From Perkinsus chesapeaki (taxonomy: Eukaryota; Perkinsozoa; Perkinsida; Perkinsidae), in the NCBI GenBank assembly GCA_013115145.1, contig JAAPAO010000007.1, forward strand, positions 62,001-126,000: a DNA stretch of 64,000 nucleotides. Reading direction: 5' to 3'. This document shows, one piece after another, positions 1-39,000 of the stretch (its first letter is position 1; every line of letters starts with the position of its first letter). Below the pieces are notes generated by a model that did not search any database, was not told where the DNA came from, and saw only the letters and a program-made list of their open reading frames with translations. Position numbers and translations under genes: made by a program.

Positions 1-3000
1 TTCGCCGACAGGGTGCTGCCGAATCTGGCTACCGATCTGCAAGAAAGACTGGAACCTAGAGAAAGGTTATCCAACACGCTCAGCTTAGATGCCAGCCTGG
101 CGAATGACCTAAGTGAGATCGTAGAACCCAGGCTGCTCAATGATACGACAGAAAGGCTGGAGCCGGTACGCAGCAGGCCAAGTAACGAGAGGTCACAGCC
201 CATGCGAGTGAACTGCCGAACTGATAGAGAACTGCCCAAGTGAGTGAAGCCGATGGTGGATATCTTATAGATTGACCCTATCCTGGCGAGACCAAGGACA
301 GAAACACCACTACCTAGTCGAGTCATCGATCTTACAGACAGGCTGCTACCCAGGACGGCAAAGTCGACCAGAGTCAAGTCGCTTCCTAAGCGTGCGAAAG
401 ACCTCAGCGAAAGGGCGGAGCCGAAGTGGACGCTATCAAAGACTGATACTTGGCTACCAAAGCTTGCGGCGGAAAAAGCGGACATGACGCTACCAAACCT
501 TGCCGCCGACCTCAAAGAAAGCGAGCTTGCCAGGCCAACAAAATCGAAGACCGAATAGCAGCTGCCGAACCTAGCATAGCTCCGCACAGATAGGCTGCTG
601 CCAAGGTGAACTTCATCAAGTACAGAGAGAGCCGCTCCAACGCGAGACTGGGAGATAATCGACAGTCCGCTGCCGAGCCTGATAAAGCTCCTCAAAGACA
701 AGCTGCTACCGATGGCAGTAGAATCGAGAACAGTTAGCGACGAACTGAATCGCGCGAAAGACCTCAGCGAGAGCGAGGACCCGAAGCTGCTTTGACCGAC
801 CAGCGACATGGATGACCCCATGTAGCAGAACGATCGGAGAGAGAGCGTGCTACCGAATTCTGCCGAATCTAGTATAGACGTCTTGCTGCCGAGCCTAGCA
901 AACGACCTCAAAGAGAGGCTCGAACCGAAGAGGCCTCCAGCGATTACAGACAATTTATAAACCGAGCCGATTCGGGCAAGACCAGTTACAGATAAGCCAC
1001 TCCCGAAGCGAGCAACCGCGTGTAGTGACAACGAGCTCCCAAGTCCACAAGCGTCCAATACAGTCAAGCTCGCACCGAGTTGAGTGGAAGATAGAGCAGA
1101 GAGTGTGCTGCCAAATCGACTGAATGACCTCAGAGACAGCGAACTGGCTAGCTGAGAGGATGCAATCACCGACAGCTTGTAAACGGAGCCAACGCGTGCG
1201 AGGCCGTAAGCACTGATACCGCTACCGAATCGAGCTACGCTCCTCAGAGACAAGGAGCTGCCTAAGCCCACTGTGGCGAGGACAGTTAGGCTGGAGCCTA
1301 GTCGAGTCGAACCAAGAACAGACTGGGAACTACCAAACCTCATGAAGCTCCTGAGAGAGAGCGAGCTTCCAAGCAAAGCACCATCCAAGGCAGACAGACC
1401 GCTACCGAGGAAGCCACTGAGTGCTGCAGAGAGCGAGCTACCAGCTCTACAGAGGGACCGTACTGATAGAGAGCTACCAAGCTGCGCGTACCCAATGACC
1501 GAAGCCTTGGAGCCTAGGCGAGCAAAGGATCGGAGAGACAGAGAAGACCCGAATGCGGTACCGTCCAGAACGCTAGTGGACGAGCCCAGACGTGCAGCTG
1601 ATGCCGCGGAAAGGGTGCTTCCAAAACGCACGAGGGAACGCAAGGACAGCGAGCTGCCACAGGTTACGTGGTCTAGAACGGTAAGAGACGAACCTACTCT
1701 TGCAAGACCAACGGTAGACACCGCCGATCCGAGTCGAGCTATAGCCCGCAAGGACAAGGAGCTCCCGAGAGTGGTGAAGTCAAGAACGGATAGCTTGGAG
1801 CCAAACCTTGCGAGTGACCGAAGCGATAACGATGACCCACAAGTAGTTGCATCCAGAACGCTCATGGTGCCAGACAAGACGCTATCGCCGAACACCGATA
1901 CTGAGCTTCCTAGGCGGGCAAACGAGCGCAAAGATAAAGTGCTACCGAAATTGGTCATGCCAATCACGGAGAGTTCCGCGAGTGACTCAACTCGGAGCAC
2001 TCCGGCAACCGATAATCCGCTACCGGCTCTCACAACTGACCGGATTGACAGACTACTGCCAAGAGTAGTGAAATCAAGAACCGATAGATGCCCACTTAGC
2101 CTGGCGAATGACCGCAGTGAGAGTGACGATCCAAATGCTGCCTCACCAACCACGGATAAGGAGTCGCCAACCCGCAACCAAGAGTGTACCGAAAGCGAGC
2201 TACCAAGCCGAGCAAAATCTCTTAGGGACAGCGAACTGCCAAGTGTACAGACTTCCAAAGCAGAGAGCTTGCTACCTAACCTGGCAAACGATCGCATCGA
2301 CACCGATGAGCCAAAGCTGGCAAAGCTCAATACCGAAAGGTTTTCCCCTATCGATGCACCTTTCAGAGTAGAGATCGAGCTGCCGAGCCTTGCGAAGGCT
2401 CGGAGGGAGAGTGAGCTCGCGAAACTAGCCTGAGCTACGGCGGAAAGGCTATATACAGAGCCAATCCTTGCCAACCCAAGAACAGACACCGAGGAGCCGA
2501 GCCTCGCCATGCCTCTCAAAGACCAGGCGCTACCAAGTTTGACGAAGTCGAGAACGCTAGCTGAGCTTCCTAGTCTAGCAAATGATCGTAAAGACAGGCT
2601 AGATGCCAGATGTGTCTCTTTGACAACCGACATTGCATTACCGAGTCGGGCGCGACCCACTATCGAGAGGGAACTGCCGAATCTGGCGACGGACCTCAGG
2701 GACAGTGTACTGCCCAAAGCAGTGCATGTGAGCGCTGACAAGGAGCCTCCGAGCCTGGCGAAACTTCTTAGAGAAAGACTGCTGCCGAAGCCAGCGCTTC
2801 CTAGAACCGACATGCTGCTGCCAACGATCGCTTGCCCGAGGCAGGAAAGTGAGCTGCCTAACCTTGCCATAGCCTTCAATGAGACAGCACTACCGCAGTT
2901 CACGTAATCTAGTACACTCAATTTGCTGCCGAGTCTGGCAAAGGAGCGAAGAGAGAGCGAAGATCCCATGGCGCCTTGCCCGAGAACCGTGAGAGAACTA

Positions 3001-6000
3001 CCCGCGTTACAGCTACCGAAGGTCGACAGAGTGCTGCCGAGCCTCGACACCGCTCGTAAGCTAAGCGAGCTTCCAAATGATGCCCCATCGAAGATGGACA
3101 AGGTGCTACCGATGTTAGCTCTGCTGAAGACACTGAACGTGCTGCCGGCACGGCAAAAGCTTCTCAAAGAGAGACCGGAGCCGAAGGTAGCCATCGAGAC
3201 CGCTGAGACCGATGAACCTATACGCGCGACAGCTAAGACACTCAGTGACGATCCGGTTCGGATGAAGTTGCGAATCGACAGGGAGGAAGAGAACTGGGAG
3301 TATTCCACAACAGATAGGCGACCGCCGACTCTTGCTCGGCCGACAACAGAGACTTCACTGCCGAAGCGAGTAAATCCACGAACGGACATAGCTGAGCCCA
3401 TCAAGACGTAGTCGAAGATGGACACGGAAGAGCCTATCCTGGAAAGACCGAAGACCGAAAGCCTTCCACCAAGTCGACCAAAACTGGCCAGGGAAAGGGA
3501 GCTGCCGAAACCAGTGCAGTCGAGCACACTAAGACCCTTGCCTATGCGTGTGGAGTGGTATACTGAGGCAACACTGCCGATCCTAGCAAGAGAGCGTAGT
3601 GATAGAGCAGATGCGAGCGATGTAGCGTCGAATGCAGATAAGGTAGAGCCTAGACGCGTACTGGATAGCACACTCAAGTTGGAACCAAACCGCATAGAGG
3701 CTCGAAGGGACATAGAGCTACCTAGAGCCACATTGTCCAGAACCGACAAGGCACCGCCCATCCTAGCAGCGCTGAACATGGACAGCCCAGAACCCAGTCT
3801 GACGAAATCACGCAGCGAGAACGAGCTACCAAGGTTACAAAGCTCGAACACCGTGATGGAACTGCCGAACCTGGAGACCGAGCGGATCGAGAGGTTGCTG
3901 CCAAAATTAGCATAGTCGAAAACAGAGGCCGTACTACCGAGCCTACCGAAAGACCGCAGAGACAGTGACGAGCCGAAAGCAGATGCTCCAACGACCGACA
4001 GATCATGAAGGGAGCCGAGACGTGTGAGGCCGGCTACCGATACCGTGCTGCCAAACCTAGCGAAGGCTCTCAGTGATAGCGATGATCCCAAGTCGACGAA
4101 GTTCAGGACTGATATCGAGCTAGCAAGTCTGGATGCTCCGAACACCGAGAGCGTGCTGCCGAGCCGAGTGAAGGCGTTGAGAGAGAGGCTGCTTCCTAAG
4201 TTTGTCATATCAAAGGTCGAAAGGGGTTTGCCGTAGCGGGTTATCGCAGCAAAGGACACGCCGCTGCCAAACCTCATGAAGCTTCTCAAAGACAGGGAAC
4301 TTCCGAGAACTGCCGCGTCCGCAACAGACACTCTTGACCCGAACCGAGCAAATGATCGTAGGGAAAGAGATGAGCCAAATGTAGCACCTGCCACGACGGA
4401 AAGCTTGTACACAGAAGCCAGTCGAGTAACACCACCGACTGATAAGCCGGAGCCGAGTCGGGCGAAGCTCCTGATTGACAGGGCGCTACCGAAGATCATG
4501 GCATCAAAGGCAGATAGTCGCTTACCGAAGCGGCCAAAGGAACCAAGTGATACGGAGCTACCAAGATTCACCGAGTCGAGCGCACTAAGCGTCCTCGTTA
4601 AGCGAGAAAGACCGGTGATAGAGCAGCCGCTTCCTAGGCGCATCAGACCCCGGAGCGAGAGAGAACTGCCGAAACTGGTTGCGTCAAGAGCAGAGAGAGT
4701 TCGTCCAAACTGAGCTTGACTGAAAACGGAAATTTGGCTGCCGAATCGACCAAGGGACCGCAAGCTTAGTGAGCTGCCGAGGCTGACGAAATCAAATACA
4801 GAGGTAGGCGAGCCAAGTCGAGTGAAGCTGGTCACCGACAGAGTTGAGCCGAACGTACCATAATCGAGAACGGACAAAGCAGAGGCAAGCGTGGTAGAGC
4901 TATACACAGACATACTGCTGCCGAAGCGCGACACTGCCCGAAGAGAGAGGCTGCTACCGTAGGTCGTAGCATCGAGCACACTGAGAGAGTCACCGAGCCG
5001 AGCATCGGACATAACCGAAAGGACACTGCCTAGGCGCACAAAGGACCTCAGCGATAGACCAGATCCAAGTGCCATTGCACCCAATACACTCATAGAGCCG
5101 CTAACGCGTGACTTGCTAGTGAGTGACAGTGAGCTTCCCAGGCGAGCACTCCCTCTCAACGACAGGGAGCTACCGAGAGCAGCATAACCTAAGATGCTAG
5201 CGGATGCTCCGAGCCGTGCAAACGAGCGCAGAGAAAGAGAAGACGCCAGCTCTGTTTGGGCAATGACCGACAGCTTGAACACCGAGCCTATACGGGTCAA
5301 CCCAGCAACAGATAAGCCGCTGCCAACACGAGCGAAGCTGCGCACCGACAGAGAGCTACCCAAAGCAGTTCCAGCAATAACCGATAGCTTATATACAGAA
5401 CCTACCCGAGCCAAGCCAACAACGCTCAGACCGCTGCCAATTCGAGTGAACTGTCGAACCGATAAGGAGCTTCCGAGACATGCGTACTCCAAAGCACTCA
5501 AGGCACCGCTGACCCTGGCAAATGCTCGAACCGAAAGGGACGATCCGAGGTCAGTGAATCCGACCGCAGAGCAAGAGCCACCGAACCTAGCCCAACTAAG
5601 CGAGCTGAGGGCACTTCCAAGCCTTCCAGTACCAGCAACAGATATGCCGCTACCTAGTCGTGCGTGGGCACGGAGAGACATAGAGCTACCACAAGTGGCA
5701 AAGTCCATAACCGTGACTTTGGAGCCCATCCTGGCGAAGCTTCGCAAGGACAACGAGCTACCGAAGTCAGCTAGACTGGTTACAGACATGGTGCCCATAC
5801 CAATCATGTTGCCGACAATCGATAGAGAACTTCCCAATCGAGCAAAGCTTCTCAGTGACAAGGCGCTGCCGACATCAGTCTGTGCTATGACAGAAAGTCG
5901 GTACGCTGAACCCAAGCGGAGCAGACCGACCATTGACAAACCGCTGCCGAGTCTGGCTACATTACGGAGGCTCATGGAGCTACCACAACTAGCATAGTCC

Positions 6001-9000
6001 AAGACGGAGAGTTTGCTGCTAAGACGAGTGAGGCTTCGTAAACTGCATGAGCTACCGAAGCTAACTGCATCCAAAGCACTCAGTGTACTGCCGGTTCGTA
6101 ACCATCCCAGAGAGCTCGTCAATGAGCCGATATGCAGTCCAGTGGTAACCGATAGGGTGCTGCCAAGGCGACCGAATGAACGGAGGGAAAGGGTGCTTCC
6201 GAAGGAAGTGCACGCCAGGACACTCATCTTCTCTCCTACGCGTGCGAAGAACCTCAACGATAACGAGGAGCTCAATGATGCCGCTTCCAACACCGATACT
6301 TGACTCCCGAGTCGTCCAAATCCACGCAGCGAAAGGGTGGAACCGAAAGCAACTTCGTTAAGTACCGACAAGGTCGACCCTAAGTTTGTTGCGGCGAAAA
6401 CAGAAGCGACACTTCCCAATCTGGCCATGGTCCGTAAAGAGAGAGATGAGCCGAAGTCTGTGCTATCTAGGGCAGACAACTTGCTTCCGAACCTCGCTAA
6501 CGAGCGTAGTGACAAAGACGATCCAAATTGAGCTGCTCCTAAAATGCTTGTAGTGTCACCGAGCCGAGTCCAGGACAGTAAGCTCGCCGTCGAACCACCG
6601 CGTATCCCGTCGAAGACAGAGACAGTACTACCAAATCGAGCAAAGGAGCGGAGAGATAGACTGCTTCCAATAGCAACTTGGCACAGGGCGGAGCTTTGAC
6701 TGCCTAAGCGGGCAAACGATCGCAATGATAGGGAAGACCCGCAAGTGCTGCTGGCAAGAACTGAGATGGCACTGCCGCACCGAGACACTCCCGATACCGA
6801 TAGAACGCTGCCAAAGCGCACGAGAGTGCGGACGGATAACGAGCTTCCAAGGGTAACATAGTCCAGGATAGACGCAGATGAGCCAACACGGCCAAAGGAC
6901 CGGAGCGACAACGTTGAGCCAAAATTGCTGCAACCCAAAGTAGAGATAGAATCTCCCAGTCTAGTTGCTGACAACACAGAGGCCGTCGAACCAAGTCGGG
7001 CCATGGCTCTCAATGACAAGGAACTAGCAAAGCTTGATGTGGCGATAACAGATAGCTTATACAGAGAGCCAACACGTGCCAGGCCAGTCACCGAGATACC
7101 GCTGCCGAGTCTAGCCACCGAACGGAGGGACAACGAGCTCCCTAAGCATGCATAGTCAATGACCGTCGTTTTACTGCCGAGTCTAGCAAAAGACCTCAAG
7201 GACAGACTGGACGCGAAGGATGTCTTGCCCAAGGCAGACAAAGTAGAACCGAGCCTACACTGCGAGAACACGCTGGCGCTGCTGCCAAGTCTAGCAAAGG
7301 ATGTCAGGGAGAGAGCGCTACCCAGTAGTGTGAAGTCCAGTATGCTAACCTTAGAGCCGGTTCTAGCAAACGACCTCAGAGAAAGGGAGGAGCCAAGATC
7401 GGCGCAGGCGAGTGTGCTTGCCTTACTGCCGAAGCGAGCAAAGCTTCGCAAAGATAGCGAGGAACCAAAGGCAGTCGTACCGATGACGGACATACTAGAG
7501 CCGACCCGAGCAGCCCCATAAACCGAGCACGAACTACCGATCCTCAAAGCGGCCCTTAAAGACAGCGCACTGCCGAGGCAAGTACGATCAAGAACTGTCA
7601 ACTTGCTACCGAGCCTTGCAAAGCTTCTAAGGGAAAGCGATGAGCCCAGAGTTGCCTCTTCTACTGCGGAGAGAGATTGGCCTACTCTGACAAGCCCTTG
7701 TAGAGAGACATTGCTGCCTAGCCTGGCGAAGGATCGCAGAGACAAGGAGCTACCGAAGGTCATACCGGCTATGACGGAGAGGTCGTACACCGAGCCCAGA
7801 CGAGCTAGCCCGAAGACGGATACACCACTGCCGCAGCGAGCCATCGCCCGAACGGACAGAGAGCTGCCGATGAGCACGTAATCGAGAGCGCTAACCTTAC
7901 TACCAAGCCGGGCGAAAGATCTCAGGGACAGCGACGAGCCAAACTCGGTCTGCGCAAGGACTGATAGGGTGTCTCCAAGACTTGTAGAGGCAATCGCCGA
8001 TAGTGAGGACCCAACATTAACAGTACCAACCATCGAAAGGGAACTTCCGAGACGAGCGAAGCATCGCATAGATACGCTGCTGCCTAAAGTAGTGTAGTCC
8101 AAAGCGGAGAGCTTGCCACCTAGTCTGGCAAAGGTGCGAACGGACAAAGAGGAGCCAAGCTCAGCCTGTGCCACCGTGCTGAACCCAGAACCGAAGCGAG
8201 CAAAGGATCGCAAGGATAGAGAAGAAGCGCAAGTAGTAGCAGCTATAACGGAAAGCTTGTAGACCGATCCGATCCGAGCGAGCCCAACCACTGAAAGGCC
8301 GCTACCAACGCGGACAAATTGCCGCACCGACAGGGAGCTGCCGAGGTTTGTGAAGTCTAGAATACTAGTCTTGCTTCCGATCCTCGAGAAAGACCTCAAA
8401 GAAAGAGCGGAACCGAACTGGACGGAGTCTACTACGGACAATGTCGAACCCATCCTCGTATAATCAAGGACAGATAGCGAGCTAGATACTTGAGCTGCAC
8501 CAGTAACAGAGATGCAGCTGCCTAGACGGGCAAAGCTTCTCAGTGAGAGGCTGCTTGCGAGGTGCTGGGATGCTATCACAGAAAGCTTGTAAACTGATCC
8601 GATCCGGGTAAGCCCCTTCACAGACATACCGCTGCCAAGGCGTGCCATCGAACGCAGCGAAAGAGAAGAGCCCAGATCGACCTCAGATAGAACACTGCTG
8701 CTGCTACCAAATCGACTGAAGGACCGTATTGACAATGTGCTACCGATCTGACCGAAGTCGAATAAGCTCATCGACTGACCTAGTCGTGCAAGAGATTGCA
8801 GAGACATAGTGCTGCCGAGACGAGCACAGGACCTCAGTGAGAGAGAGCTGCCGAAACTCGCCTGTGATATCACAGACAAGGAGTATACTGATCCGACGCG
8901 AGTGAGGCCAGTGACAGATAAAGTACTCCCGAGGCGAGCGGTACCACGCACCGATAACGAGCTGCCAAGTTGTACAAAGTCAAGCACGCTAGCGTAGCTC

Positions 9001-18000: not shown

Positions 18001-21000
18001 GAGCCAAGGCGAGCAACACCGTAGAGGGAGAGACCGCTGCCTAGCCGTACACAGGAACGCAGCGATACCGAACTGCTCATTTCTACCTGTTGGAAGACCG
18101 AGAGGACACCGCCAAGACGGGACTTGCTGGCAGCGGAGAAGGCACTCCCCACCCTCGCGAAGGACCGCAAGGACAAAGCACTGCCAAGGTTACTACTGCC
18201 CAGAGCTGAAAGGGCCGCACCACAGGCTGCCGTGGACGTCACAGAGAAGGACGAGCCAACTCTTCCGAAGCCGCGAAGAGATAGTGCTGACCCAAGCAAG
18301 GTAGCATCTAAGGTCGACAGAGCAGCACCAAGCCTTGAAACGGCAGTCACACTGACAACAGAACCGAAGCGGGCAAAGGATCTCATTGACACTGAGGATC
18401 CGAGGGCAGCAGCATCGAGGACGCTCATACGAGAGCCAAACCTGGCCAAGGCGCAGGCCGAGAAGGAACTTCCAAGCCTAGCCATTCCACGGAGGCTAAG
18501 AGTGCTGCCGAGGTGCAGCTGTTGTACAACAGAAAGCTTGCCACCAACACGCGCGAATGAGCGAAGCGACAAGGACGATCCAAGATGAACCTCCGCCAGA
18601 ACGGACAGACTATCGCCAACTCGAGCCAGATCAAGGATCGAGGTGGCAGAGCCGACAATAGCGGTGCCGACCAGTGATAAGCTGCTGCCAAATCTCGCGA
18701 AGTCTCTTAATGAGAGGGAGCTCCCGAGGAGCTGGCGGTCGACGAGGGACATGGTCGAACCGAAGCGAGTCCAGGAGAAGACCGAGAGGCTACTACCGAA
18801 CCTCGCGAGTGTCCGAAGTGAGAGGGCGCTGCCAAGCTGGGTGTAGTCCAATATTGATACTTTGCTGCCCAGCCGAGCGAAGGACCTCAGAGAAATGCTA
18901 GATCCGAATTCAGTTCGGCTTAGTACACTCGCGGAAGCTCCGAACTTCGCCTGACCAATAACTGACACACCACTGCCGAGGCGAATGGCGGCACGAAGAG
19001 ACAGTGAGCTACCAAGAGTGGTGGCGTCAACCACAGAGACCGTCTTGCCCATCCTGGCTTTGTCGAGAAGAGACAAAGATGAACCAAGACGCACAACATT
19101 ACGTAGGGACAGGCTGCTGCCTAACGTGAAGTAGTCTAGTATGGAGGCTGATGAGCCTAACCTGGCGAAGGTGCGCAGGGAGAGCGAGCTGCCGAGCTCG
19201 GCTTGTTCGATAACCGAGAGGCCAGATACACGAGCGAGACCAACTGCTGAGACCTGGCTGCCTAGCCGGAGGGCGCATCGTACTGACAACGCGCTGCCGA
19301 AGAGGACGTAATTGAGAGCGCTCAGCTTCGAGCTCAGTCGAGCCTGAGTTCTAAGAGACAAAGAACTGCCGAGGTGAGCGAAGTCAACGGTGCTAATGCT
19401 CTTCCCGAGCCTTGCGAAGCCTCTTATAGACAGGGTGCTACCGAAAGTGGTCGCATCGAGTACGGACAGAGAGTCACCAAGTCGGGTCCAGTCGAGGACG
19501 GAAAGAGACGAGCCGACGCGGACAAGTCCGAGAGTCGACAGACTGCTTCCGATGCGACTGGTGCTGCGCAAAGATAGGCTGCTGCCGAAAGCAACGAAAT
19601 CCACTGTACTCAAAGAGGCGCCGAGCCTGACAGTGGAAAGGGCCGACATGGAGCTGCCCAACCTGGCGAAGCTCCGTAAGGATGCCGCACTTCCCAGATG
19701 AGTGACGTCTACCACCGACAAGGATATACCGACGCGAGCTCCACCAACAGCAGAGATCGAGCTTCCCAGTCTAGTAGAAGCTCGTAAGGACAGAGCACTG
19801 CCGAGGAAGGTTGCCCCCACGGCACTTAAGCTGGCTCCGAGCCTCGATGTAGAACATACGGAAATAGAACTTCCTAATCGAGCGAATCCTCGAGTTGAGA
19901 GGGAACTTCCTAAGTGAGTGAAGTCCAGCACCGACAGGTCCTGCCCAAGGCGAGTGGTATCAAGCGCGGACAGAGGGCCACCAATGCGAGTGTCCGACAG
20001 AACGCTGATCGTGCTTCCTATCCTAGCAGCGGCTCTGATGGATAAAGTGCTACCGAAAACAACCTGGTCGAGGACCGTCAGGGAAGCACCCATCCGTGTA
20101 GCGCCTATCACTGACACTGTGCTGCCGGAACGGAAGAAGCTTCTCAATGATAGAGAACTACCGAACTCAGAGACATCTAGCACAGACAGGGAACTGCCTG
20201 CTTTAACGAAGCTCCTCATTGACAGCGAGGATCCAAACTGAGCCTTGCACATTACGGAGATTTGGTCACCGAGCCGAGAGATACCTCGGACCGATATAGC
20301 CGAGCCTACTCGAGCAAATGCCCTCAGGGATAGCGAGCTAGCAAGAGTCGATGAGCCAATGACGCTCAACGCATCGGCCATACGGGTACGGCCGAAGATG
20401 GACAGTGAACTCCCGAATCTCGCCAATCCTCGAAGAGACAATGAGCTGCCCAGCTCGGTGGCGGCCAAAACTGAAGCACCATCCGATATTCGAGCAAAGG
20501 ACCGCATCGAAAGCGAGCTTCCTAGGTGAGTCTGACTCACGACGCTCAAGGAGGATCCAGCTCGAGCAAGACCAAGCAACGAGCACCCACTTCCGAGCCT
20601 TCCGACAGCTCGAAGGGATAAGCTGCTGCCGAGATTGGAATAATCGAACAATGATACCCGACCGCCGAAGCGAGCAAACCGTGTGAGCGAGAGAGAGCTG
20701 CCAAGAGTCATTGCATCAACGGCCGATAGGGCAGACTGGAATCGTGCCAAGCCGGAGACAGAGAGATCGCTACCAAGGCGAGCTGTCGCTCTAACAGATA
20801 GAGTGCTTCCAAGAGCGACGTAGTCCATAATGGAGAGATAGCTTCCGGCCCTGAGGAAGGAACGAACCGAGAGGGAAGATCCGACCGTAGTGCAGTCCAG
20901 AACGGAGAGAGAGCCGCCGAACCGGGACAGGCCATACGCGGAGCAGCAGCTGCCGAAACGAGACAAGCTCCTCACAGACAGTGAGCTGCCCAGCCACACG

Positions 21001-24000
21001 TGGTCAAGCACAGACACGGAAGCACCAAGACGAGCAGCACCGAACACGGATGCCGCACTGCCAGCCTTCATGAAGGCTCTCAGCGATAAGGAGCTGCCAA
21101 GATGGACCATGTCGAGCGCAGTTAGCGACTCTCCGAGCCGCGCACGTCCGGCAAGGGACAGTGTACTGCCAACCCGGAGCATCTCCCTCAGAGAGAGGGA
21201 AGAGGCCAAGGTTGCGAAGTCGAGCACTGAAAGGCTGTCACCAAACCTCACGGATTCCATCGCGGATAAGCTGCTACCAATGCGTAGGTAAGCTCGTAAC
21301 GACAGCGTGCTGCCCATATTGACGAAGTCGAACACCGATACGGAGCTGCCTACTCTACCAAAACCGAATACGGATAGAGCCGAACCCAGGCGAGTGAAAG
21401 ACCGTACCGAGAGAGCGCTCCCAAGTAGGAAGAAATCAGCGACGCTGATTGAGCTACCGAGCCTGACCGCAGAGTAGACGGAAAGCCTAGAGCCAGCTCT
21501 GGCGAACCCTCTCAAAGAAATAGTGCTGCCGAGGGCAGCGCTGTTGAGGAGGGACATGGTGCCACCAAGGCGGGCTCCTGCGAATACTGATAGACCACTG
21601 CCAATGCGTCCTAGAGATTTCGTCGAAAACGTAGATCCAAGAGACGCCATGTCAAGCAAGGATAGGGAGGATCCAAAGCGGGAAGCTCCAGCTACGCTCA
21701 GAGTGCTGCCGAACCTCGCCAGGGATCGTAGTGACATAGAACTACTCAGAATTGCAAATCCAACTGCAGATGTTGCGGCGCCGAGGCGGCTAGTGGACTG
21801 CAATGAAAGACCACTTCCAAGTCTTGCGAAGCTCCGAATGGACAGAGAACTACCGAGAGCGGCCGAGCCAAGGGAGCTCGTCACGGCACCTAGCCTTGAA
21901 GTACCGAACGCTGAGAATTGACCACCAAACCTAACGAACTGGCGGAGAGACAGAGAGCTTCCCAAAACGGTAGAGTCCAGCAAAGTAGTACTACTCCCCA
22001 GCTTACTGGTACCGTAAAGACTGAGGGCTGACCCCAGGCGAACAAAGGCGCGTAAAGATAGGGAGCTGCCGAAGTGGGCTTGGGCGAGTACCGTGAGTTG
22101 ACTGGCAAGCTTAGAAGCTCCTAAGACGCTAACCGAGCTGCCGACGCGAGCAAATGTTCTCAATGACAGGGCGCTAGCCAAAGTGACTGTATTGACGGTA
22201 GAAAGGACACTGCCTAATCTAGCTGTGCCAAAGACCGAAAGCCTGCTTCCCATTCTGACAAGGCCACGAAGGGACAGACTACTCGAGAGAGCAGTGTAGT
22301 CAACAGCACTGAACGAGCTTCCGAAACGAGCCAAGCCGAACACCGACAGGCAGCTACCAAATCTGGCAACTGATCGCAACGACATCACGCTGCCCATAGA
22401 AGCCCAGTCGAATAAAGAGATTGACTCTCCGAACCTCGACTTGGCTGCAACACTTAGCGAGCTGCCTAGCCTGGTGAAGGACCTAGCAGATAGGCAGGAA
22501 CCAGCGTAGATCCAGTTATCTCCTGAGAGGGCGGAGCCCAGTCGTACAGCCTCGTATACAGATAGAGTGCTGCCAAGTCTAGCATAGTGACGCAAGGATA
22601 GGCTCGAGCCAAGTGTGACGAAGTCAAAGATGGAGGCACTGGAGCCTTGGCGAGCAAGACCGAATAGTGAGAGGGCCGAACCGAGCTTCTGAGTACAACG
22701 CACTGACAGAGTGCTGCCCATATGGGTAAAGTCTAAAACCGACAAAGCGCTTCCAAACCGGGTGGCACCAAAAACGGACACCGAACTACCCACTCGGAGA
22801 AGATCTCTCAGGGAGAGACAGCTGCCCAAGGCCAGGAAGTCCAGAGCCGACAAGGAGCTTCCGATGCGCTGACATCCTACGGTAGACAGAGCAGAGCCAA
22901 CCCGGGCAAAAGTACGCAAGGAGAGAGTACTGCCGAGAGTCGCTCGGTCCAGGCCACTGAGAGAGCTGCCAAGCCTCGAGCCACCGAGTACTGACAGAGA
23001 GCTGCCGACGCGCACGAACGTACGGACTGAGAGATTGCTGCCCATGCTAGCCAAGTCGGCAACAGATGCTGAACCCCCAATCTTCGCATAGCCCCACACA
23101 GACATAGCACTCCCCATACGAGCGCCAGATCGAAGAGAAAGACTGCTGCCAAAGTTGGCGCACCCTAACACCGACAAACTCTTACCAAGTCTAGCATAGG
23201 ACCTTAGAGAAAGAGTCGATCCAAAGGAACTGGCATTCAACGCACTAAGTGTGCTGCCAAGTGAAGCTCTGCCGAGCGCCGAAACGAGACCGCCAATGCG
23301 GGCTTGGCCATATGCTGAGGCACTGCTGCCCAAGCGAGAAAAAGACCTCAACGACAGAGTGCTGCCCACGAATGCCGAGCCGACGGTCGACAATGTGCTT
23401 CCATAACGTACAAGACCGAAGGTGCTGATCTGACTGCCGGCCCTTACGTAAGACCTTAGAGATAGTGTCGAGCCTAGCGTGGCAGCATCGAAAAGTGATA
23501 AGGCAGATCCGAACCGCGCCAAGGAGAAACAGGATAGAGCCGATCCAGCACGCGTAACACTGCGAACCGACAAAGCGCTGCCATAGCCAACCATGTCAAA
23601 CACGCTCAGGGATGCTCCGAGGCGGGACAAGCTGCCAACGCTTAGTGCACTGCCGGCACGAATGAAAGACCTCAACGACGTAGCTGATCCCATCTGAACA
23701 TAGTCCAAGACTGACAGGGCGCTGCCAAGCCTAGCCACACCGTACACAGTGAGGCCTGAGCCAAGTCTAACGAAGCTACGGGCCGATAGACAGCTGCCGA
23801 GTTGTTTCTGCCCAACGACTGAGCACTCAGTACCGATTCGGCACGAACCCAGCACGGATACACTCGAGCCCATTCTGAAAGCAGCTCTGAGAGAAAGGCT
23901 AGAACCTAGGGTGGTGGAGTCTAGAGCTGTCAGCGTTCGACCAAGCCTGAGGGTCTCTACTATAGAGATAGCACTGCCAATCCTGAGCAGCTGCCTCAGG

Positions 24001-30000: not shown

Positions 30001-33000
30001 AATGAGCTAATGCTACTGCCGAACCGACTGAACGAGCGGAGTGACAGGGAGCTGCCCAAAGTGGCGAAGTCAAATACAGACAGCGAGCTGCCAAGTCTTG
30101 ATACGGATAGGATCGAGACTGTAGAGCCTACTCGAGCCAAGTTTCTAAGAGAGATTGCGCTGGAGAGGCAGGCGAAATCAAGCAGCGACAAGGAAGACCC
30201 GAGGCGCGCACAGCTCAGAGCTGTTAGTGAGCTACCCAACCGGAAAAAGGCTCTTGTAGAAAGAGAGCTGCCGAGGTGGGCCTCCGAGACCGTGGAGAGG
30301 TAGGCTCCGGTTCTCATGCCATCGGCGACGGACAGACTGGATCCCAGACGAACATGAGCACGCAGGCTTAGAGAGGATCCAAGGGTTGCATAGTCTACCA
30401 TGGACATGGAACTACCAAACCTGGAGGCGCCGAAGAGAGATATAGTAGAGCCCATGCGAAAGAAGCTTCTTAATGACTGAGAACTGCCGAGGCTGACCCA
30501 GTCGAGAGTGGACATACTGCTGGCTAGCCGGGTAACCGAGAAAACCGAGAGCGTGCTGCCCACTCGGGAAAAGGTCCTCAAGGATAAGGAGGAGCTCATA
30601 CTGCTGTAGTCCAGAACAGACATAGAGCTAGCAAGTCTAGCTAGACCAATAACAGATATCGCAGAGCCAGCTCGGGCAACGGCTCGGATGGATAAAGTTG
30701 AGCCGAAGGAAGCACTATCTAGCAAGGACATGCAGCTGCCGAACCTCACCATACTGAAGACCGATAGCCTGGAGCCCAGGCGAACGTAGCTCCGCAGAGA
30801 GCAAGAGCTGCCAAAGTTGGCAAAACTTAGGACTGATGCGGACTCACCGAGCCTGGCCAAGCCAAACATAGACAAGGAGCTACCGAGTCTAGCTAGGGAC
30901 CTTACCGACATGGAGCTGCCCAAATGTAGGAAATCTAACACGCTCGCACTGGAGGCGAGACGGTTGCGGCCCACAGTAGAGAGAGCGCTACCGAGGCGGG
31001 AGAATCCTCGAAGACTAAGAGAACTACCCAAGTGGACGAAGTCAAGGGTGGACATACTTCCACCTAAACGGTACGATCCGAATGCAGAGACGCTAGATCC
31101 GAGTCGAGCAAATGACCGCAGGGAAAGGCTACTGCTGAGTAGAGCCTGACCACAGGCTGACAAGCTGTCACCGACTCGTGCACGGCCAAAAGCTGACAAA
31201 CTACTACCAAACCGAGCAAAGGTTCTCAAAGAGAGGCTGCTGCCAAGCCGAGCGAAATCCAGAACGGAAACGCTGGAGCCGAGCCGAGCGCCTTCTAGAA
31301 GGGACATAGAGCTACCGACGCGGAGAATCTTACGGATAGATAGAGCACTGCCCAAAGAAGCAAAGTGCATAACGCTCATGCTACTGCCAAATCGTGCACC
31401 GGCAAAGACCGAGAGGGTAGAGCCCAGCCGGGCAAAGGAGCGCAGGGACATGCTCGACGACAGCCGGGCGGCGTCGAGAACGGATATAGATCCGCCTACC
31501 CTGGCTAAGCCGAACGCAGAGAGGCAACTACCGAAGCGGGCCAAACCGCGGATTGAGATCGAAGAACCAAGGTGGGTAAAGTCAACCAGTGATATCGATG
31601 AACCGAATCGACCGACACCAAAGATGGAGAGGCTGCTGCCTAGGCGGCCATAGGACCTAATGGACAAGCCCGATCCAATTTGGAAGAAATCAGTAACCGA
31701 GATGGGAGCCACTGCTCGGAGCTCTCCAGTAATAGAGACCGAGCTGCCCATCCTGGCAACACCACGCAGCGATAGACAGCTGCCGAGCATGAGATAATCT
31801 AGAACAGACAGAGAACCAGCGAGTCTCGTTCGATCAAATACTGTCAGACTGCTGCCCAGTCTGCTGACACCTCGTAGTGAGAGAGTAGAGCCTAGCTGAG
31901 CAAAGTTGAGGATCGAGACCGATGAACCGATCCGACCTCCACTCAATGTTGACAATGAGCTTCCTAGTCGCATCGCTGCACGAAGAGATAGCGACGAGCC
32001 AAGAATGAGGTAGTCCAGAATGGAGGTAGAACGGCCTATTCTAGTATTAGTGAACACTGATAGAGAGGAGCCGAGTCTGGCCAGAGACCTGAGGCTCATC
32101 GAGCTGCTGCTCGCCACGCAGTCCATCACCGATAGTGCGTCTCCAAGCCTTGACAGCCCATAGACAGAGATATAGCTGCCCATTCTGGAGACAGACCTTA
32201 CCGATAGTGAAGAGCCAAATTGTGTGTAGCTCAAAGCCGAGAGCACGCTGCCGAATCGGGCAAGACCGTACACACTAACAGCGCTACCAAAGCGCATGAA
32301 GGAGCGCAGTGACATCGTAGAGCCAAGCATGACAAAGTCTAGGATAGACCCGCTGCTGCCTGCCCGGAGTAGCGAAACCATCGACAGAGATGATCCCAGC
32401 CTAGCAGTTGACCGAAGGGAAAGACTGCTGCCAAGAGAGGCGAACTCCACCAGTGACATACGGCTGCCGAGACGGGCCTCACCGAAGGTCGAAAGATATG
32501 ATCCGAGGCGAGCGAATGATCTCAGAGATAGGGTACTACCAAGCTCGACGGAGTCAAGTGTGGATAGCGTTGACCCCAGCCTGCCCATACCAAACAACGA
32601 AAGCGCCGAGCCACCTCTGGTGAATCCTCGAATAGACAAGGTACTGCCGAGATCGACGAACCCCAAGGTGGAGAAGGAGCTACCACAGCGGGCCATGGAG
32701 AAGGTCGAGATGGTGCTCCCGAGACGAGCGAAGGTCCGGAGGGACAGAGAACTCGAAACGGCAGTGTAGTCGAGAGCCGATAAGGATGCTCCAAAGCGGG
32801 CAGTGCTGCACAAGGACAGAGTGCTGCCAAGGCGGCCAGTTCCCCGGACACTCAGGCTGCTACCCAGCTGAAGGAAATCCAAGACAGTTGCGGAGCATCC
32901 CAGTCTGGCAAGGTCGAACATCGACAGTGAGCTACCGAGCCGAGCGTAGGTCTGTAGGGAGAGGGAACTGCCCAAGTGGAGGAAGTCGAGCACAGAGACA

Positions 33001-36000
33001 GAAGATCCGAGCCTGGTCCTGTCGAAGGCCGAGACCGAGCTGCCAAGTCTAGAGAAGCTCCTGAGAGATAGAGAGCTGCCAAGGTGGCTGTGATGGAGAA
33101 CGGAGAGAGCGCTGCCCAGCCGAGCTACACTGTAAACCGATACACTTGAGCCGAGGCGCGCTGTAGATCTAAGGCTCAAGGAACTTCCTAGAGTGGTCGA
33201 ATCGAACAGAGATATGGTAGAACCGAGTCTAGCACAAGAGAAGGCACTCAGTGTGCTGCCAAGCTTGAGGAAGCCTCTAGCACTGATAACGGAGCCGGTC
33301 CACAGAGAACCATGGATGGAGAAAGTGCTGCCTAGGCGAGCATAGGATCTGATGGATAAAGCGCTACCAAGGCCACTGTAGTCCAGGACAGATAGCTTCT
33401 TCCCAAGCCTCGCCCAGGAAAAGACTGAGATGTTGCTACCGAGACGAGCGCATGCTCTGACCGACAGGGAGCTGCCCAGGGCAAGATAGTCCAGTATGGA
33501 CAAGGAGCTGCCAAGCCTCGATGAAGAGTACACTGACAACCCGGATCCCAGGCGACCGGTAGCCCGCACGGAGAGGGTCGATCCCAGATCGCAGAGCTGA
33601 CGGGCCGAGAAGTAGTCTGAGAGCTGTGTCGAGCCGAAGACTGAGAGAGTACTGCCCAGTCTGATGAAGGACCGTAGGGACATCGACGACCCGAACTGGA
33701 CGTAGTCGAACACTGACGCTGAGGAACCGAGACGAGAATACCCAAAGACTGACAGAGCGCTGCCAGCTCGGGCAAATGACCTAACCGATAGCGTCGACCC
33801 TAGTGTGGCGTAGGCGAGCATGGAGAGATCACTACCGAGACGGGCTGAGCTGAAAGCCGAGACCGAGCTGCCGAACATGCCCATAGCACGGAGAGATAGG
33901 GAGCTGCCCAGCCAAGAGTGATCCAGGGCGCTGATCAAAGATCCGAACTTGGCCATGCCGTACAGAGACAGGGTGCTACCCGAGCGGACAAAGCCTCGCA
34001 GAGAAAGCGCGCTTCCTAATGCGACAAGGTCGACAGTGCTGAGCGACTGGCCAAGCCTAGCGCCACTGAAGACCGTGAGGCTGCTTCCGGCACGGAGAAG
34101 CCCACGCAGCGACAGGGAGCTACCTACCAGGCTGTAACCGAGGACAGAGATGCCAGATCCGATGCGAGCGGAGCCAAAGGAAGACAAGCTCGACCCTAGA
34201 CGGGACATGGCTCGGAGGGAAAGGGAGCTGCCGAGATCAGCCCACGCCAGGCTCGAGACAGAGCTTGCGAGCCTGGCAGCTGCTGCCAAGGATAAAGTAG
34301 ATCCGAGCCTAGCCACTGCACGCAGAGACATCGACGAGCCGAGAGCGAGGAAGTCGAGAACCGACGAGCTGCCGCCGATCCGCGCTCCACAGAAGGTCGA
34401 GAAGGTAGAGCCAAATCGAACTAGGGACCTCACAGAGAGGGCGCTGCCGAGGTGGGAGAAGTCACAGACGGACATCCCCATACCCAAGCGGGCCGAAGCA
34501 TAGGACGACACCGATGACCCAAACCTCATCAATGAACGCATGGACAGTGAGCTTCCAAGCCCGACACAGTCCAGGACCGAAACGGTGAGCCCCAGTCTGG
34601 TCGTAGAGAAGACCGACGCCATTCGACCAAACCGAGCGTGCTGCTGGAGGGACAAGGTGGATCCTAGGGTAACGTAATCGAGAACGGAAAACGAGCAACC
34701 GAGGCGACTTAGACCGGCCACCGAGAAGGCTGATCCGATGCGAGCATGGCCTCTCAAGGAGAAGGCACTACCAAGATGAACAAAGTCGAGGACCGAAACT
34801 GAGTCGCCCATCCGGCTCATACCGTATACCGAGATGCGGCTCCCAAACCGAGAGAAGTCCCTAAGAGATAGAGAAGATCCTAAAACAGTGAAATCAAGCA
34901 CGGAAGACGACGAGCCTAAAGTAGACACTCCGAACAAGGACATGGTGCTGCCGGCACGAATGACCCCACGAACCGATAAGCACGAGCCTAGTGCGCTGAG
35001 GTCTAGAACACTGAGACCGGAGCCGAGCCTAGTAGTGCCGAATATAGAAACTGTGGAGCCCATCCTAGCAGCTGACCTCAGTGAGAGTGCCGAGCCAAAC
35101 GACAGCTGCCCTAGAACCGAAAAAGAACTACCTAACCTCGAGGTGGCGTACACAGATAGGGTACTGCCTAGCCTCGAACTGGACCGAATACTCATGCTAG
35201 AACCCATTGTGAGGTAATCGAGCACCGACAGGCTTTGGGCGAATCTGCTCGCTGCCGCAACCGAAACGGTGCTACCAGCTCTAATGAACGAGCGAAGAGA
35301 TAGAACACTGCCAACAGCTACGAAGTCCAACACTGAGATGCTACTGCCAAACCGTGACACGCCATAGGTCGAGACGTGGCTGCCTAGGCGGGCCACTGAC
35401 CGCAGGGACAGTGCGCTGCCCAACGCTGTGAAGGTCATCACAGACAGAGCCGAGCCTAGCCGCGTCGTCGCCAGGAGAGAGATAGTACTCCCAAAGCGAG
35501 CAAACGAACGTATTGACATGGACGAGCTCAGTGTCGCGAAGCCCAGACTTGAAATCTGAGAGCCGAACCTTGTCTGGCTGAAGACCGAGATAGTGCTTCC
35601 GAGTCGGATAAGGCTGCGTAGAGAGAAGGCACTGCCGAGGTTCACGCAGTCATACGTGGACAGTACGCTGCCAAGGCGAGCCAAGCTAAAGACCGATACT
35701 GCAGAGCCAGCTCGGAAGAAGGCCCTCAACGACATGCTGCTGCCCAAGGCCAACATGTCCAACATAGAGACTGAGCTGCCCTGGCGAACCTTACTATAAA
35801 CCGAGAGAGAGCTACCGAACCTCATGCTCGAACGGATGGACATGGTACTGCCCAGGTTGACAAAGTCTAAGACAGACATGCTGCAACCGATGCGAGCCAT
35901 GCCGTAGGCTGAGCAGCTCGAGCCGAACCTAGAGAAGGATCTTATAGAGATAGCACTGGCTAGGTTGGTAAGGTCCAAAATGGAGAGAGAACTGCCCATA

Positions 36001-39000
36001 CGAGCTTGGCCAAACAGACTGAGCGTGCTGCCAAAACGGGCAAAGTTGCGGACGGAGAGGGAGCTGCCGAGGGCCATAAACCCGAGGGTCGAGACCGAGC
36101 TAGCCATTCTCGCCACAGCAAAGACCGAAAGACCGCTGCCAGCTCTGGCGAAAGTTCTCAATGAGAGTGACGAGGCACAGGTGGCGAAATCTAGCAGGGA
36201 TATCTGCGACCCTAACCTGGCCATACCAACCACAGAAAGGCTGCTGCCGAGGCGAGCAAAGGATCGCAGTGACTGGGTCGAGCCTAGAGCCGCAAAATCG
36301 AGCACAGTAACGGTGTGGCCGAAGCGCGCTAGACACTCTAAGGAAAGAGAACTGCCAAGGCGAGCAAATGCCCGTAGAGAGAGAGCACTGCCACCTAGGC
36401 TGAAGTCTAGCACAGAGAGGCTAGAGCCAAGTCTGGAGCAACCGAAAACTGAGACCGAGCTGCCAACTCGACCCAAGGCTCGTACCGATAGTGCAGAGCC
36501 AATGGCTACGCTGTCCAAAGCGGAGAGTGTGAGACCAAGACGAGCTCTGCTGAATACACTGAGGGTGCTGCCGAGCCGAGCGAACTGACGCATGGAGACA
36601 GTGCTGCCAAAGTGGGCCGCGCTAACCACGGAAAGGTGACTTCCTAGTCTACAGAGACCGAAGGCCGAGACAGAGCTACCAAAGCGAGCCAAACCACGCA
36701 GAGAGAGAGCGCTCCCCATAGCCGAGAAGTCGAGAACGCTGGCGGTACTTCCAGCACGAAGACAACCAAACGTCGATACCGTAGAGCCGAAGCGGGCGAA
36801 TGACCGCAGTGATATGGTGCTGCCGATCAGTGTGTAGTCCAGCACCGACAACGAGGACCCGAGCCTCGCCCAACCGTAGGCTGATAGAGTACTGCCGAGC
36901 CTGGCCTGGCCACGGAGAGACAGCGATGAACCCATCAATACAAAGGAGAGAGCAGACAAGCTGTCACCGAATCGGCTCAGGCAGTGGGCGGACAAGGCAG
37001 AGCCGAGCCTGGTAAAGGCTCTAGTGGAGAGTGCCGAGCCGAGGTTGATGAGGTCCAGCGCTGTAATGCTGGCACCGATGCGAGCCAGACCGACCGTGGA
37101 TAGAGCGCTGCCGATGCGGGCCAGGTTACGAAGAGATAGGCTGCTACCGAGCTGGAAGAAGTCTAGGATGCTGACTGTCGATGCCAGACGGGCTAGGCCG
37201 ACCAAAGAGAAGGAACTGCCAAATCTGCCGAACTCCCTCAAGGACAGTGAGCTGCTCAGTACAGCAAAATCTAGTATAGAGGCTGATGAGCCAAACCGCG
37301 CCAAACCAAAGGCAGAGACAGTCGAGCCCATACGAAGGAAGGACCTCAGTGAGAAAGTGCTGCCTAAATGGGCAAAGCCTAGCACGGAGAGAGAGGTGCC
37401 GAGCCGAGCTTGGCCATAGACAGACAGCGCAGAGCCGGCCCTTGCCGCCGATCTCAAAGACATGGACGAGCCCAGGTGAACCCAGTCCAGGACGGACACA
37501 CTGCTGCCGAGCCTCGCCATACCGAAGGCTGAGACACTTGACCCGAGCCTGGAGAAGGACCGGAACGATAGCGAACTGCCAGTGTGAGCGTAGTCTAGAA
37601 CGGATAGATTATCGCCTATGCGAGCACCGGCCACCAACGATAGAGAGCTGCCGACCCGGACGTACTCCCTAAGGGACAAGCTGCTTCCCAGAGTTGAGGA
37701 GTCCAGGAGTGACAGAGCCGAACCGAAGCGTCCAAGACCGCACACTGACAGAGCACTGCCGAGCCTGTTCACCGCTCTGAGACTCAGGGAGGATCCCAAA
37801 GCCGACGCATCTAGTATAGAGAAGCCGCTGCCCATACGGAAATGGGTGTGCATGGACAAGGACGATCCTAACCTTGCTGCTGCTCGAAGAGACAATGTGC
37901 TGCCTAGGGCTATAGAGTCCAGGACAGATAGGCTGGAACCAATACGAGCCAGACCATAGAAGGAAAGGCCAGAGCCAAACCTAGTAAAGCCTCGGATGCT
38001 CATCGCCGAGCCGAGGTTGGCGAAGTCCAAACCGGAAAGCGACGAGCCGAACCGTGCCATGCCGTAAACCGACACCGATGAGCCAGCTCGAGCGAAGCGA
38101 TGAAGAGACAGAGAGGATCCCATGGTTGTGAAGTCGAGCACCTGAAGAGCAGCATGTCAGCCAGGCGGCAGGCTCGTACACTTACGCTCAGGCTGGCGCC
38201 AAGGACGGCACGATCGAATATACTGCACGAGCTACCTATCCTAGCAAAGCCTCTCAGACTCAATGACGAACTCAGAGTTGTGAGATCCAGAACGGAGAGA
38301 GATGCTCCGAACCGAGAGGTTCCGTATCTGAGGACGCCTTCAACGGTCTAGGGGAGAGAGGCACGTACAGAGAGGCTGAGCTGCCCAGTCTCATGAAGGA
38401 CTGCAAGGATAGTGCGCTGCCGATATTGATGAAATCTAATGTGGTCAGAGATTGGCCCATACGAGCTCGACCTAACAAACGACTATCGCTGAGCATGTAT
38501 TCGAAGCTCGACCCTTACCTGCAACCGACATGTAGCTTCCCAGTCTGAAGGATGCCCTTATCGATGCCGAGCTGCCCAGAGCAATCTACACAGGCAGCGC
38601 TCATCCAGGCCGCTCCAGGCCGACGAGTATTTCCTTACCCAGTCCAGTACGGAGAGGCGGCTTCCAAGCCTTGTTGTGCCATATAAGGACAGTGCGCTGC
38701 CAATCCTGGCATACGTTCGGATCGAGGTCGAGCTACCGAACGTTGCATAGTCCAGAACCGATAACGACGATCCAAACATCTAACAAGAGTAATCCGGGGA
38801 GGAACAGAGGACGGTCCTACCGCCGAGTTGAAGAGAGATAGGCCACTGCCAAGCTTAGCGAAGTTGTATACAGACAGGGAGCTGCCCATTGAGACATAAT
38901 CGAAGATGCTGACCGTGGAATGCAGAACTGCTGAGCCGTACACCTAATAGGCAGACAGTAAGAGTGTATTTCCATACGTTAAGGAGATCCCTACGCTGAG

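What the first reader, a model, noticed from the sequence alone, without database searches (positions are those of the whole stretch)
1..38141. Single exon of at least 12,713 open codons encoding a megadalton repeat protein
One minus-strand frame stays open for the whole left 38.1 kb and leaves the window still open. Spot translation at the far left (VARFGSTLSA), near 2,900, near 20,100 and near 38,100 always lands in the same frame and repeat register. No stop-terminated ORF of 60 or more codons occurs in that frame anywhere in the region, which it would if a stop interrupted it. With the 5' exons this implies at least about 13,000 residues, roughly 1.3 MDa, among the largest proteins of any microbe. 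The family and function are unknown to me.
Basis: seen in the sequence. Interest (0 to 1): 0.95.

Follow-up and report, generated by a model that had tools for sequence, protein, structure and literature searches.

The report
Two-megadalton fibre protein of a perkinsid
A single-celled organism that looks like a Perkinsus parasite carries a gene for a protein of about 22,500 amino acids, almost all of it one 12-residue motif repeated about 1,800 times and ending in a bacteriophage-type self-cutting folding domain, so it probably makes a very long fibre outside the cell.

Summary
The minus frame is stop-free over window 3-38,156 and stays open 28 kb further left: 22,003 codons, one coding exon of about 65.9 kb. 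It is no assembly collapse: no 31-mer occurs twice, and silent sites between repeats are near saturation while the protein motif is kept. The exon is an almost pure array of about 1,797 twelve-residue units. Three short exons behind it encode a Peptidase_S74 intramolecular chaperone (E=1.6e-14) with its Ser-Lys dyad and a coiled-coil-like tail; before it lie about ten short exons and a likely signal-peptide exon. A second, diverged giant (13,728-codon frame) with a similar layout lies on another contig. Spliced-leader sequences place the genome in or near Perkinsus. Relatives with repeat plus S74 occur among transcripts, including Alexandrium; a Vitrella model has the repeat without S74. My searches found no published description. 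Best reading: a secreted, probably trimeric beta-solenoid fibre, about 0.6-0.9 micrometre long, folded and released like a phage tail fibre. Sequence, architecture and selection are shown; secretion, trimer, cleavage, fold and location are inferred. No structure could be predicted. A flagellar-hair shaft is an attractive untested role.

The parts
1..38141 (-). Window part of the giant coding exon (12-residue repeat array); it continues left out of the window to C664:34,204 (window coordinate -27,796), about 65.9 kb in all
38186..38327 (-). short 5' repeat exon, joined in register to the giant exon over a 44-nt GT-AG intron
   Evidence: predicted by a splice-aware script
38369..38465 (-). short 5' repeat exon
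   Evidence: predicted
38519..38585 (-). short 5' repeat exon
   Evidence: predicted
38639..38779 (-). short 5' repeat exon
   Evidence: predicted
38821..38908 (-). short 5' repeat exon
   Evidence: predicted
38978..39042 (-). short 5' exon
   Evidence: predicted, less certain
39112..39229 (-). short 5' repeat exon
   Evidence: predicted
39284..39328 (-). short 5' exon
   Evidence: predicted, less certain
39369..39526 (-). short 5' exon
   Evidence: predicted
39574..39685 (-). short 5' exon; the path between here and 40,000 is unresolved
   Evidence: predicted
40000..40083 (-). exon with WVLVGR-G-IT-LG motif, shared with the paralogue on C12
   Evidence: borders set by hand (the script preferred another donor at 40,050); tblastn E 0.001 in a 3.7-kb target
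40130..40183 (-). putative first coding exon: hydrophobic signal peptide starting at ATG
   Evidence: judged by eye, no predictor run
44146..49401 (+). neighbour, not part of the system: pyruvate oxidoreductase fused to flavodoxin/FAD/NAD reductase (PNO type)

Best explanation
The gene encodes a secreted giant fibre. Order: signal peptide, small N-terminal region, about 1,800 twelve-residue units forming an unbroken beta-solenoid rod, Peptidase_S74 (intramolecular chaperone, ICA) domain, coiled-coil-like tail. Proposed working: the chain enters the ER; the C-terminal coil and ICA, made last, bring three chains together and nucleate the rod; once folded, the ICA serine cuts the chain just before the SDRRLK motif and falls away, leaving a mature, strongly cationic fibre (net about +1,330 charges), about 0.58 micrometre long if a coil takes 18 residues and 0.86 if it takes 12, which acts at or outside the cell surface. 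SHOWN: open frame, repeat, selection for the protein, S74 match with dyad, paralogue, relatives, some of them under transcript names. INFERRED: secretion (signal peptides by eye), trimer, cleavage, rod fold, surface role.
For: Frame and size: (giant frame plus C-terminus 22,144 aa, 2,252 kDa; five of these codons lie before the splice acceptor). Purity: 1,797 units = 98.1% of 21,984 aa, spacings 12 (1,704), 14 (65), 23 (24); Ser at position 6 in 97%; one run of 361 units without indel; held-out test. Selection: identity by codon position between units 36 aa apart 0.48/0.67/0.31; best DNA identity among 108-bp blocks averages 0.614 against 0.597 in one synonymous shuffle. S74: genome search E 1.4e-7, spliced E 1.6e-14 over profile 1-58, paralogue 1.4e-12; phage tail-fibre PHROGs down to 4.1e-19; PDB 6f45 long tail fibre E 3.7e-4. 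Dyad: Ser and Lys five apart, in both paralogues and in 60 of 60 relatives that I picked by length from those with PF13884; over all 120 listed hits 99 have the SD-x-[RKQ]-LK motif. MYRF S578/K583 has the same spacing (PMC3742443, passages). Relatives: 194 hits, 106 of 120 listed carry PF13884, 13 of 120 have transcript-assembly names. Extracellular hint: Vitrella relative P0009 carries TSP1-like matches, below their cut-offs. Rod-fold hint: the NCBIfam families that match the repeat are LpxA, LpxD, NeuD and GlmU, which I recall as left-handed beta-helix proteins.
Against: No structure prediction ran, so rod and trimer are untested. All NCBIfam matches are below curated cut-offs (140.3 and 205.5 of 231 bits), and the Pfam matches that do exceed a cut-off are of unrelated families (NOP5NT, Peptidase_C23, LRR_5), which shows how loosely such a repeat can match. 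No RNA or protein data exist here for this gene itself. Signal peptides are by eye; the N-terminal similarity of the paralogues is short (E 0.001) and the rest of the N-terminal region is unresolved. The 78 viral S74 loci that could be tested lack a clear 12-residue periodicity, so the tail-fibre analogy rests on the S74 domain; on the other hand two phage families of unknown function match the repeat itself. The Vitrella and S. necroappetens models with the repeat have no S74 match. A frame this long may fail to be translated end to end.
Confidence: 0.6

Rival explanations
1. Captured viral fibre: the gene descends from an endogenous polinton-like virus, giant virus or phage fibre gene and is a remnant, not a working host gene.
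For: S74 fibre proteins up to 3.9k aa are reported as ubiquitous in polinton-like viruses of most eukaryotic groups sampled (PMC12220804, passages); 144 viral-contig stretches encode a relative of the S74 query; P0011, of unnamed source, combines S74 with similar repeats and a bactofilin match; phrog_36281 and phrog_5353 match the repeat.
Against: Introns, two of the three S74-side ones at corresponding places in two diverged paralogues; the recognisable neighbours are cellular: two PFK frames, an exonuclease frame and its near copy, PNO (7 of the 10 frames had no Pfam match, and no search for viral genes was made); selection kept 22,003 codons open; of 78 viral S74 loci tested 5 have their best lag at 12/24/36, one at 12, weak. 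Remote viral origin of the S74 domain is not excluded.
Confidence: 0.1
2. Intracellular polymer: the repeat forms a bactofilin-like cytoskeletal rod, and the S74 domain frees it from a membrane as in MYRF.
For: Bactofilin matches in relatives P0011 and P0053 (precomputed); in MYRF the ICA domain works in a membrane-bound protein (PMC3742443, passages).
Against: Putative signal peptides in both paralogues; TSP1-like matches in the Vitrella relative; no bactofilin match in the scanned pieces of this protein.
Confidence: 0.12
3. Parasite surface coat or adhesin: the cationic fibre binds host or mucus polyanions during infection of molluscs. (A special case of the best explanation.)
For: Net charge about +1,330, with Arg at position 12 in 56% of units; Perkinsus-like genome.
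Against: Relatives occur in Alexandrium and Symbiodinium, so a parasitism-specific role is unlikely to be the original one; no credible binding domain found in the exon.
Confidence: 0.25
4. Artefact: mis-assembly or a chance open frame.
For: None beyond the extraordinary length.
Against: 0 stops where 469 are expected, codon-position signature, no repeated 31-mer in 65,979 positions, independent second giant.
Confidence: 0.03

Closest known systems
Peptidase S74 / ICA intramolecular chaperone of phage tail spikes and tail fibres (Pfam PF13884)
   Same: Domain match over the curated cut-off, near the C-terminal end, Ser-Lys dyad with spacing 5, coiled-coil-like tail
   Different: Sits behind about 22,000 residues of one 12-residue repeat in a eukaryote; none of the 78 viral S74 loci that could be tested has a clear 12-residue array
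MYRF/MrfA, the eukaryotic ICA proteins
   Same: Same kind of chaperone/protease domain in a eukaryotic protein
   Different: MYRF is a membrane-bound transcription factor with a DNA-binding domain; here a putative signal peptide and a fibre-like array
Uncharacterised 'Peptidase S74 domain-containing proteins' of Alexandrium monilatum and A. catenella, and repeat proteins of Symbiodinium and Vitrella
   Same: Same 12-residue repeat and, in 106 of 120 listed hits, PF13884 (36% identity for the two Alexandrium entries; 27-58% over the list, the highest over 9% of the query)
   Different: Hits are 352-2,783 aa, which the length windows of the searches impose (352-1,120, 1,128-3,591 and 5,500-17,500 aa; the last gave nothing); lengths between and above were not searched. 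The Vitrella and S. necroappetens models lack S74
Left-handed beta-helix (hexapeptide) proteins such as LpxA/LpxD
   Same: Sequence periodicity that LpxA/LpxD profiles recognise (NCBIfam E to 7.7e-61, below cut-off); 36 aa would equal two 18-residue coils
   Different: No acyltransferase cut-off reached; the array is about a hundred times longer

Membership tests
Peptidase S74 / ICA domain | Profile match above curated cut-off | tested here: met
   PF13884 54.4 bits, cut-off 22, profile 1-58 of 58 (hand-spliced)
Peptidase S74 / ICA domain | Catalytic Ser and Lys five residues apart | tested here: met
   SDRRLK in both paralogues; 60 of 60 picked relatives, motif in 99 of all 120 listed; dyad described in PMC3742443 (passages)
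Peptidase S74 / ICA domain | Trimerises the chain before it and cuts itself off | not testable with these tools
   needs protein
Phage tail fibre | Encoded in a phage genome, fixed to a virion | tested here: not met
   eukaryotic genome with introns, cellular neighbours
Left-handed beta-helix hexapeptide proteins | Curated profile cut-off | tested here: not met
   LpxA 140.3 and 205.5 of 231 bits; Pfam Hexapep 24.6 of 27
Left-handed beta-helix hexapeptide proteins | Triangular left-handed coil | not tested
   Structure prediction was busy in all 26 attempts
Bactofilin | PF04519 match | tested here: not met
   no match in the scanned pieces of this protein; only in relatives P0011 and P0053
Perkinsus (organism) | Perkinsus-type spliced leader with C at the variable site | tested here: met
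   8 exact copies, all with C, and 9 one-mismatch copies; control 0; sequence given in PMC3101222 and PMC9399869 (passages). Species not determined
Mastigoneme (flagellar hair) protein | Located in flagellar hairs | not testable with these tools
   only size and phylogenetic plausibility

The most novel reading that the evidence does not exclude
The two giants are the shaft proteins of the flagellar hairs (tinsel) of perkinsids and dinoflagellates: single-molecule-long trimeric rods, made in the ER/perinuclear space, measured out by gene length and finished by a phage-type self-cleaving chaperone. P. olseni tinsel is reported as 1.3 micrometre long (PMC7398310, passage; the printed error, +/- 2.9, looks wrong); the two arrays end to end would span about 0.9-1.4 micrometre (21,564 residues in units here, 13,728 codons there, 18 or 12 residues per 0.48-nm coil; coil size and rise recalled). 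Fibres in the dinoflagellate perinuclear space have been read as hair precursors without molecular evidence (PMC3377698, passage).
Probability: 0.15. Interest if true: 0.85.

Novelty: new variant of a known kind. Interest (0 to 1): 0.66.

Why it matters
To my knowledge (recalled, not searched) it is one of the longest uninterrupted coding exons and one of the largest proteins of a microbial eukaryote, made of a single ancient motif that shows no recent re-amplification. It joins a phage-type self-cleaving chaperone to what is probably a cell-made micrometre-scale fibre, and supplies a gene family with which the composition of dinoflagellate and perkinsid surface fibres or flagellar hairs can be tested.

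Tried and rejected
Rejected: a collapsed or misassembled array (no repeated 31-mer; no 108-bp block above 74.1% identity to another, neighbours within two units left out). Rejected: enzymatic or other domains inside the exon. Pfam gave NOP5NT (34.5 bits, cut-off 27), Peptidase_C23 (29.2, cut-off 25) and LRR_5 (29.8, cut-off 27.7) over cut-off, but none has a single stretch that passes alone; I read them as sums of weak repeat matches. LpxA/LpxD names are below cut-off and often sums. The first segmentation figure (98.1%) is weak by itself, because the same lax procedure puts 1,179 units into a shuffled protein; hence the held-out test.

Led nowhere: structure prediction (26 calls, machine busy); SSU rRNA search (not completed), so no species; a search for related proteins of 5,500-17,500 aa (455 candidates scored, none at E<=0.001); an automatic gene model for the paralogue's 5' end (poor in AT-rich DNA). 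Papers: 'LGSSLSLR', Perkinsus + peptidase S74, dinoflagellate + peptidase S74: none found. Mixed terms on chaperone, alveolates and giant proteins: 13 listed, seen as listing only, none about this by title. Perkinsus + intramolecular chaperone and endosialidase + dinoflagellate gave 1 and 2 papers; of these I read passages of PMC12220804 only, the other two were seen in the listing alone. Giant-protein search and Perkinsus genome search: listings only, nothing used.
Full report
Observation. The minus frame is free of stops from window 3 to 38,156. The window lies at 62,001-126,000 of contig C664 (166,478 bp) of a 35.4-Mb genome in 884 contigs. Fetching the left flank shows the same frame open to C664:34,148, 22,003 codons with no stop. 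With the splice acceptor at window 38,141 and a donor after C664:34,204 the coding exon is about 65.9 kb. Base composition predicts 469 stops in this frame and none is seen; the other five frames have 340 to 1,420.

Reality of the array. No 31-mer occurs twice among 65,979 positions. Between units 36 residues apart (in the 361-unit run), identity by codon position is 0.48, 0.67 and 0.31, and the best DNA match of each 108-bp block is hardly above what one shuffle of synonymous codons gives (mean 0.614 against 0.597; maxima 0.741 and 0.704). So the units are old, their silent sites are near saturation, and the protein motif has been kept by selection without recent tandem expansion. Short-read collapse is not a concern in such an array.

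The repeat. Segmentation gives 1,797 units of 12 residues; position 1 is mostly L/F, 2 G, 3 S, 5 L, 6 S (97%), 7 V/L, 12 R (56%). In a held-out test 97.4% of 897 units score positive, against 3.9% for shuffled sequence at its best phase; segmentation alone is too lax to prove this. Three zones can be seen: to about residue 8,200 mostly strict 36-residue triplets, including 361 units without an indel; to about 20,500 a two-residue insertion every 38-518 residues (65 in all); and in the last 1,300 residues an 11-residue unit, mostly every 59-83 residues. The exon's product has 1,962 K+R, 632 D+E and 11 prolines.

Ends of the protein. Right behind the exon a 90-nt GT-AG intron contains the in-frame stop. 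After it come exons at C664:34,113-33,893, 33,817-33,704 and 33,624-33,478, which encode a complete Peptidase_S74 domain (E 1.6e-14) and a coiled-coil-like tail (weak Pfam coiled-coil matches below cut-off). On the 5' side ten short exons (window 39,685-38,186), most of them with repeats, are predicted, and a likely signal-peptide exon at 40,183-40,130 is followed by an exon with the motif WVLVGR-G-IT-LG. The part between 40,000 and 39,685 is unresolved. Giant frame plus C-terminus is 22,144 aa, 2,252 kDa; with the 5' exons about 22,500 aa.

A second giant. The repeat matches two places only, C664 and C12 (94 matches, all there; 23 of 33 candidates scored, so a lower bound). PF13884 also matches only these two at E<=0.001 (3 candidates scored). 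C12 has an open frame of 13,728 codons (C12:7,416-48,599), the same unit in the parts that I hold, two of the three S74-side introns at corresponding places (the third is absent there), and a signal-peptide-like start with the same WVLVGR motif. Identity of its stretches to the window's repeats is 46-59%.

Organism. The genome contains the spliced-leader exon with C at the variable site, 8 exact and 9 one-mismatch copies, reversed control 0 (the pattern allowed C or T and every exact copy has C). This form is that of Perkinsus marinus, while dinoflagellates have T (PMC3101222 and PMC9399869, passages read). The fused pyruvate oxidoreductase next door fits, from general knowledge. The species is not known: the SSU rRNA search did not complete.

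Relatives. A 2,052-aa repeat query found 24 proteins, among them Symbiodinium necroappetens, Symbiodinium sp. KB8 and Vitrella brassicaformis, and weakly a chromosome-borne Ostrea edulis protein (E 2.4e-6). A 640-aa C-terminal query found 194; of the 120 listed, 106 have PF13884, 13 bear transcript-assembly names (one of them Alexandrium) and two more are UniRef entries of Alexandrium. 99 of the 120 have the SD-x-[RKQ]-LK motif and 116 have their best lag at 12, 24 or 36; since the hits were found with a repeat-bearing query, the lag figure is partly built in. In an alignment of 60 that I picked by length from those with PF13884, Ser and Lys of the dyad are invariant. Of 80 viral S74 loci (the best of 144), 78 could be tested and 5 have such a lag, one at 12 and weak. 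But two phage families of unknown function match the repeat itself (phrog_36281, E 9.6e-29; phrog_5353), so the repeat is not confined to alveolates; what I saw there and not in the tested viral loci is the long array joined to S74, with the unnamed P0011 as a possible exception. The Vitrella relative has TSP1-like matches below cut-off and no S74.

Mechanism. In phage endosialidases and in MYRF the ICA domain drives trimerisation, typically of a triple beta-helix, and cuts the chain at the serine of a Ser-Lys dyad five apart (PMC3742443, passages). The same residues and spacing are here. The NCBIfam families that match the repeat, here and in P0002 and P0009 (not P0008), are LpxA, LpxD, NeuD and GlmU, all below cut-off; I recall these as left-handed beta-helices. 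The PDB profile search points weakly the same way (LpxA, E 0.028). Pfam instead puts three unrelated families over cut-off as sums of weak matches, a warning. I propose a secreted trimeric beta-solenoid fibre, 0.58 micrometre long at 18 residues per coil or 0.86 at 12 (0.48 nm per coil, recalled). The rod fold, trimer, cleavage and secretion are inferences.

Where it acts. Relatives in dinoflagellates and Vitrella argue for a general surface structure over a parasitism factor. Flagellar hairs are a concrete candidate: P. olseni zoospores have a one-sided tinsel row reported 1.3 micrometre long (PMC7398310, passage), and perinuclear fibres in dinoflagellates have been read as hair precursors without molecular evidence (PMC3377698, passage). 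This is untested; I give it 0.15.

Novelty. The pieces are known kinds: S74 domain, beta-solenoid-like repeat, dinoflagellate S74 proteins in databases. The scale, single exon, two giants in one genome and frozen array are new to me; the named paper searches found no description.

Noticed in passing
proteins P0003, P0005, P0006, P0007, P0008, P0010, P0012, P0013, P0014, P0016, P0060, P0101, P0131: In 13 of 144 relatives (P0008 is Symbiodinium necroappetens; most others are unnamed) the conserved Ser of the unit reads P, L or F in more than 40% of units; in five of them (P0003, P0005, P0012, P0101, P0131) other residues make up 3% or less, in the other eight 8-35%; 129 proteins have at most 20% (mean 6%) and two lie between. 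In the six looked at, Gly often reads D/E and Arg H/C/Q. At codon level these are mostly one-transition changes; I had proteins only, no DNA. Nuclear RNA editing or a transition-biased mutation process are candidates; editing in 1.6% of nuclear genes is reported in S. microadriaticum, with all base-substitution types (PMC5357065, abstract).
   Followed up: partly
window 44146-49401 (+): Pyruvate:ferredoxin oxidoreductase fused to flavodoxin, FAD- and NAD-binding domains (PNO type), 1,752 open codons.
   Followed up: partly
C664:17163-19109 and 19583-21571 (window -44837 to -40429): Two neighbouring frames for 3'-5' exonuclease-like proteins that share near-identical blocks, suggesting recent duplication or gene conversion (Pfam on the first).
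   Followed up: no
C664:776-1687 and 3465-4298: Two phosphofructokinase frames in tandem.
   Followed up: no
window 54725-54832: Perfect 47-bp tandem repeat, 2.3 copies.
   Followed up: no
protein P0001 (window 32000-38156, minus) and P0011: Phage protein families of unknown function match the repeat: phrog_36281 and phrog_5353 match both P0001 and P0011, phrog_5070 matches P0011.
   Followed up: no
protein P0024: A protein of the flat oyster Ostrea edulis on a chromosome-length contig matches the repeat weakly (E 2.4e-6, 26% identity over 25% of the query); possibly chance in a Ser-rich stretch.
   Followed up: no
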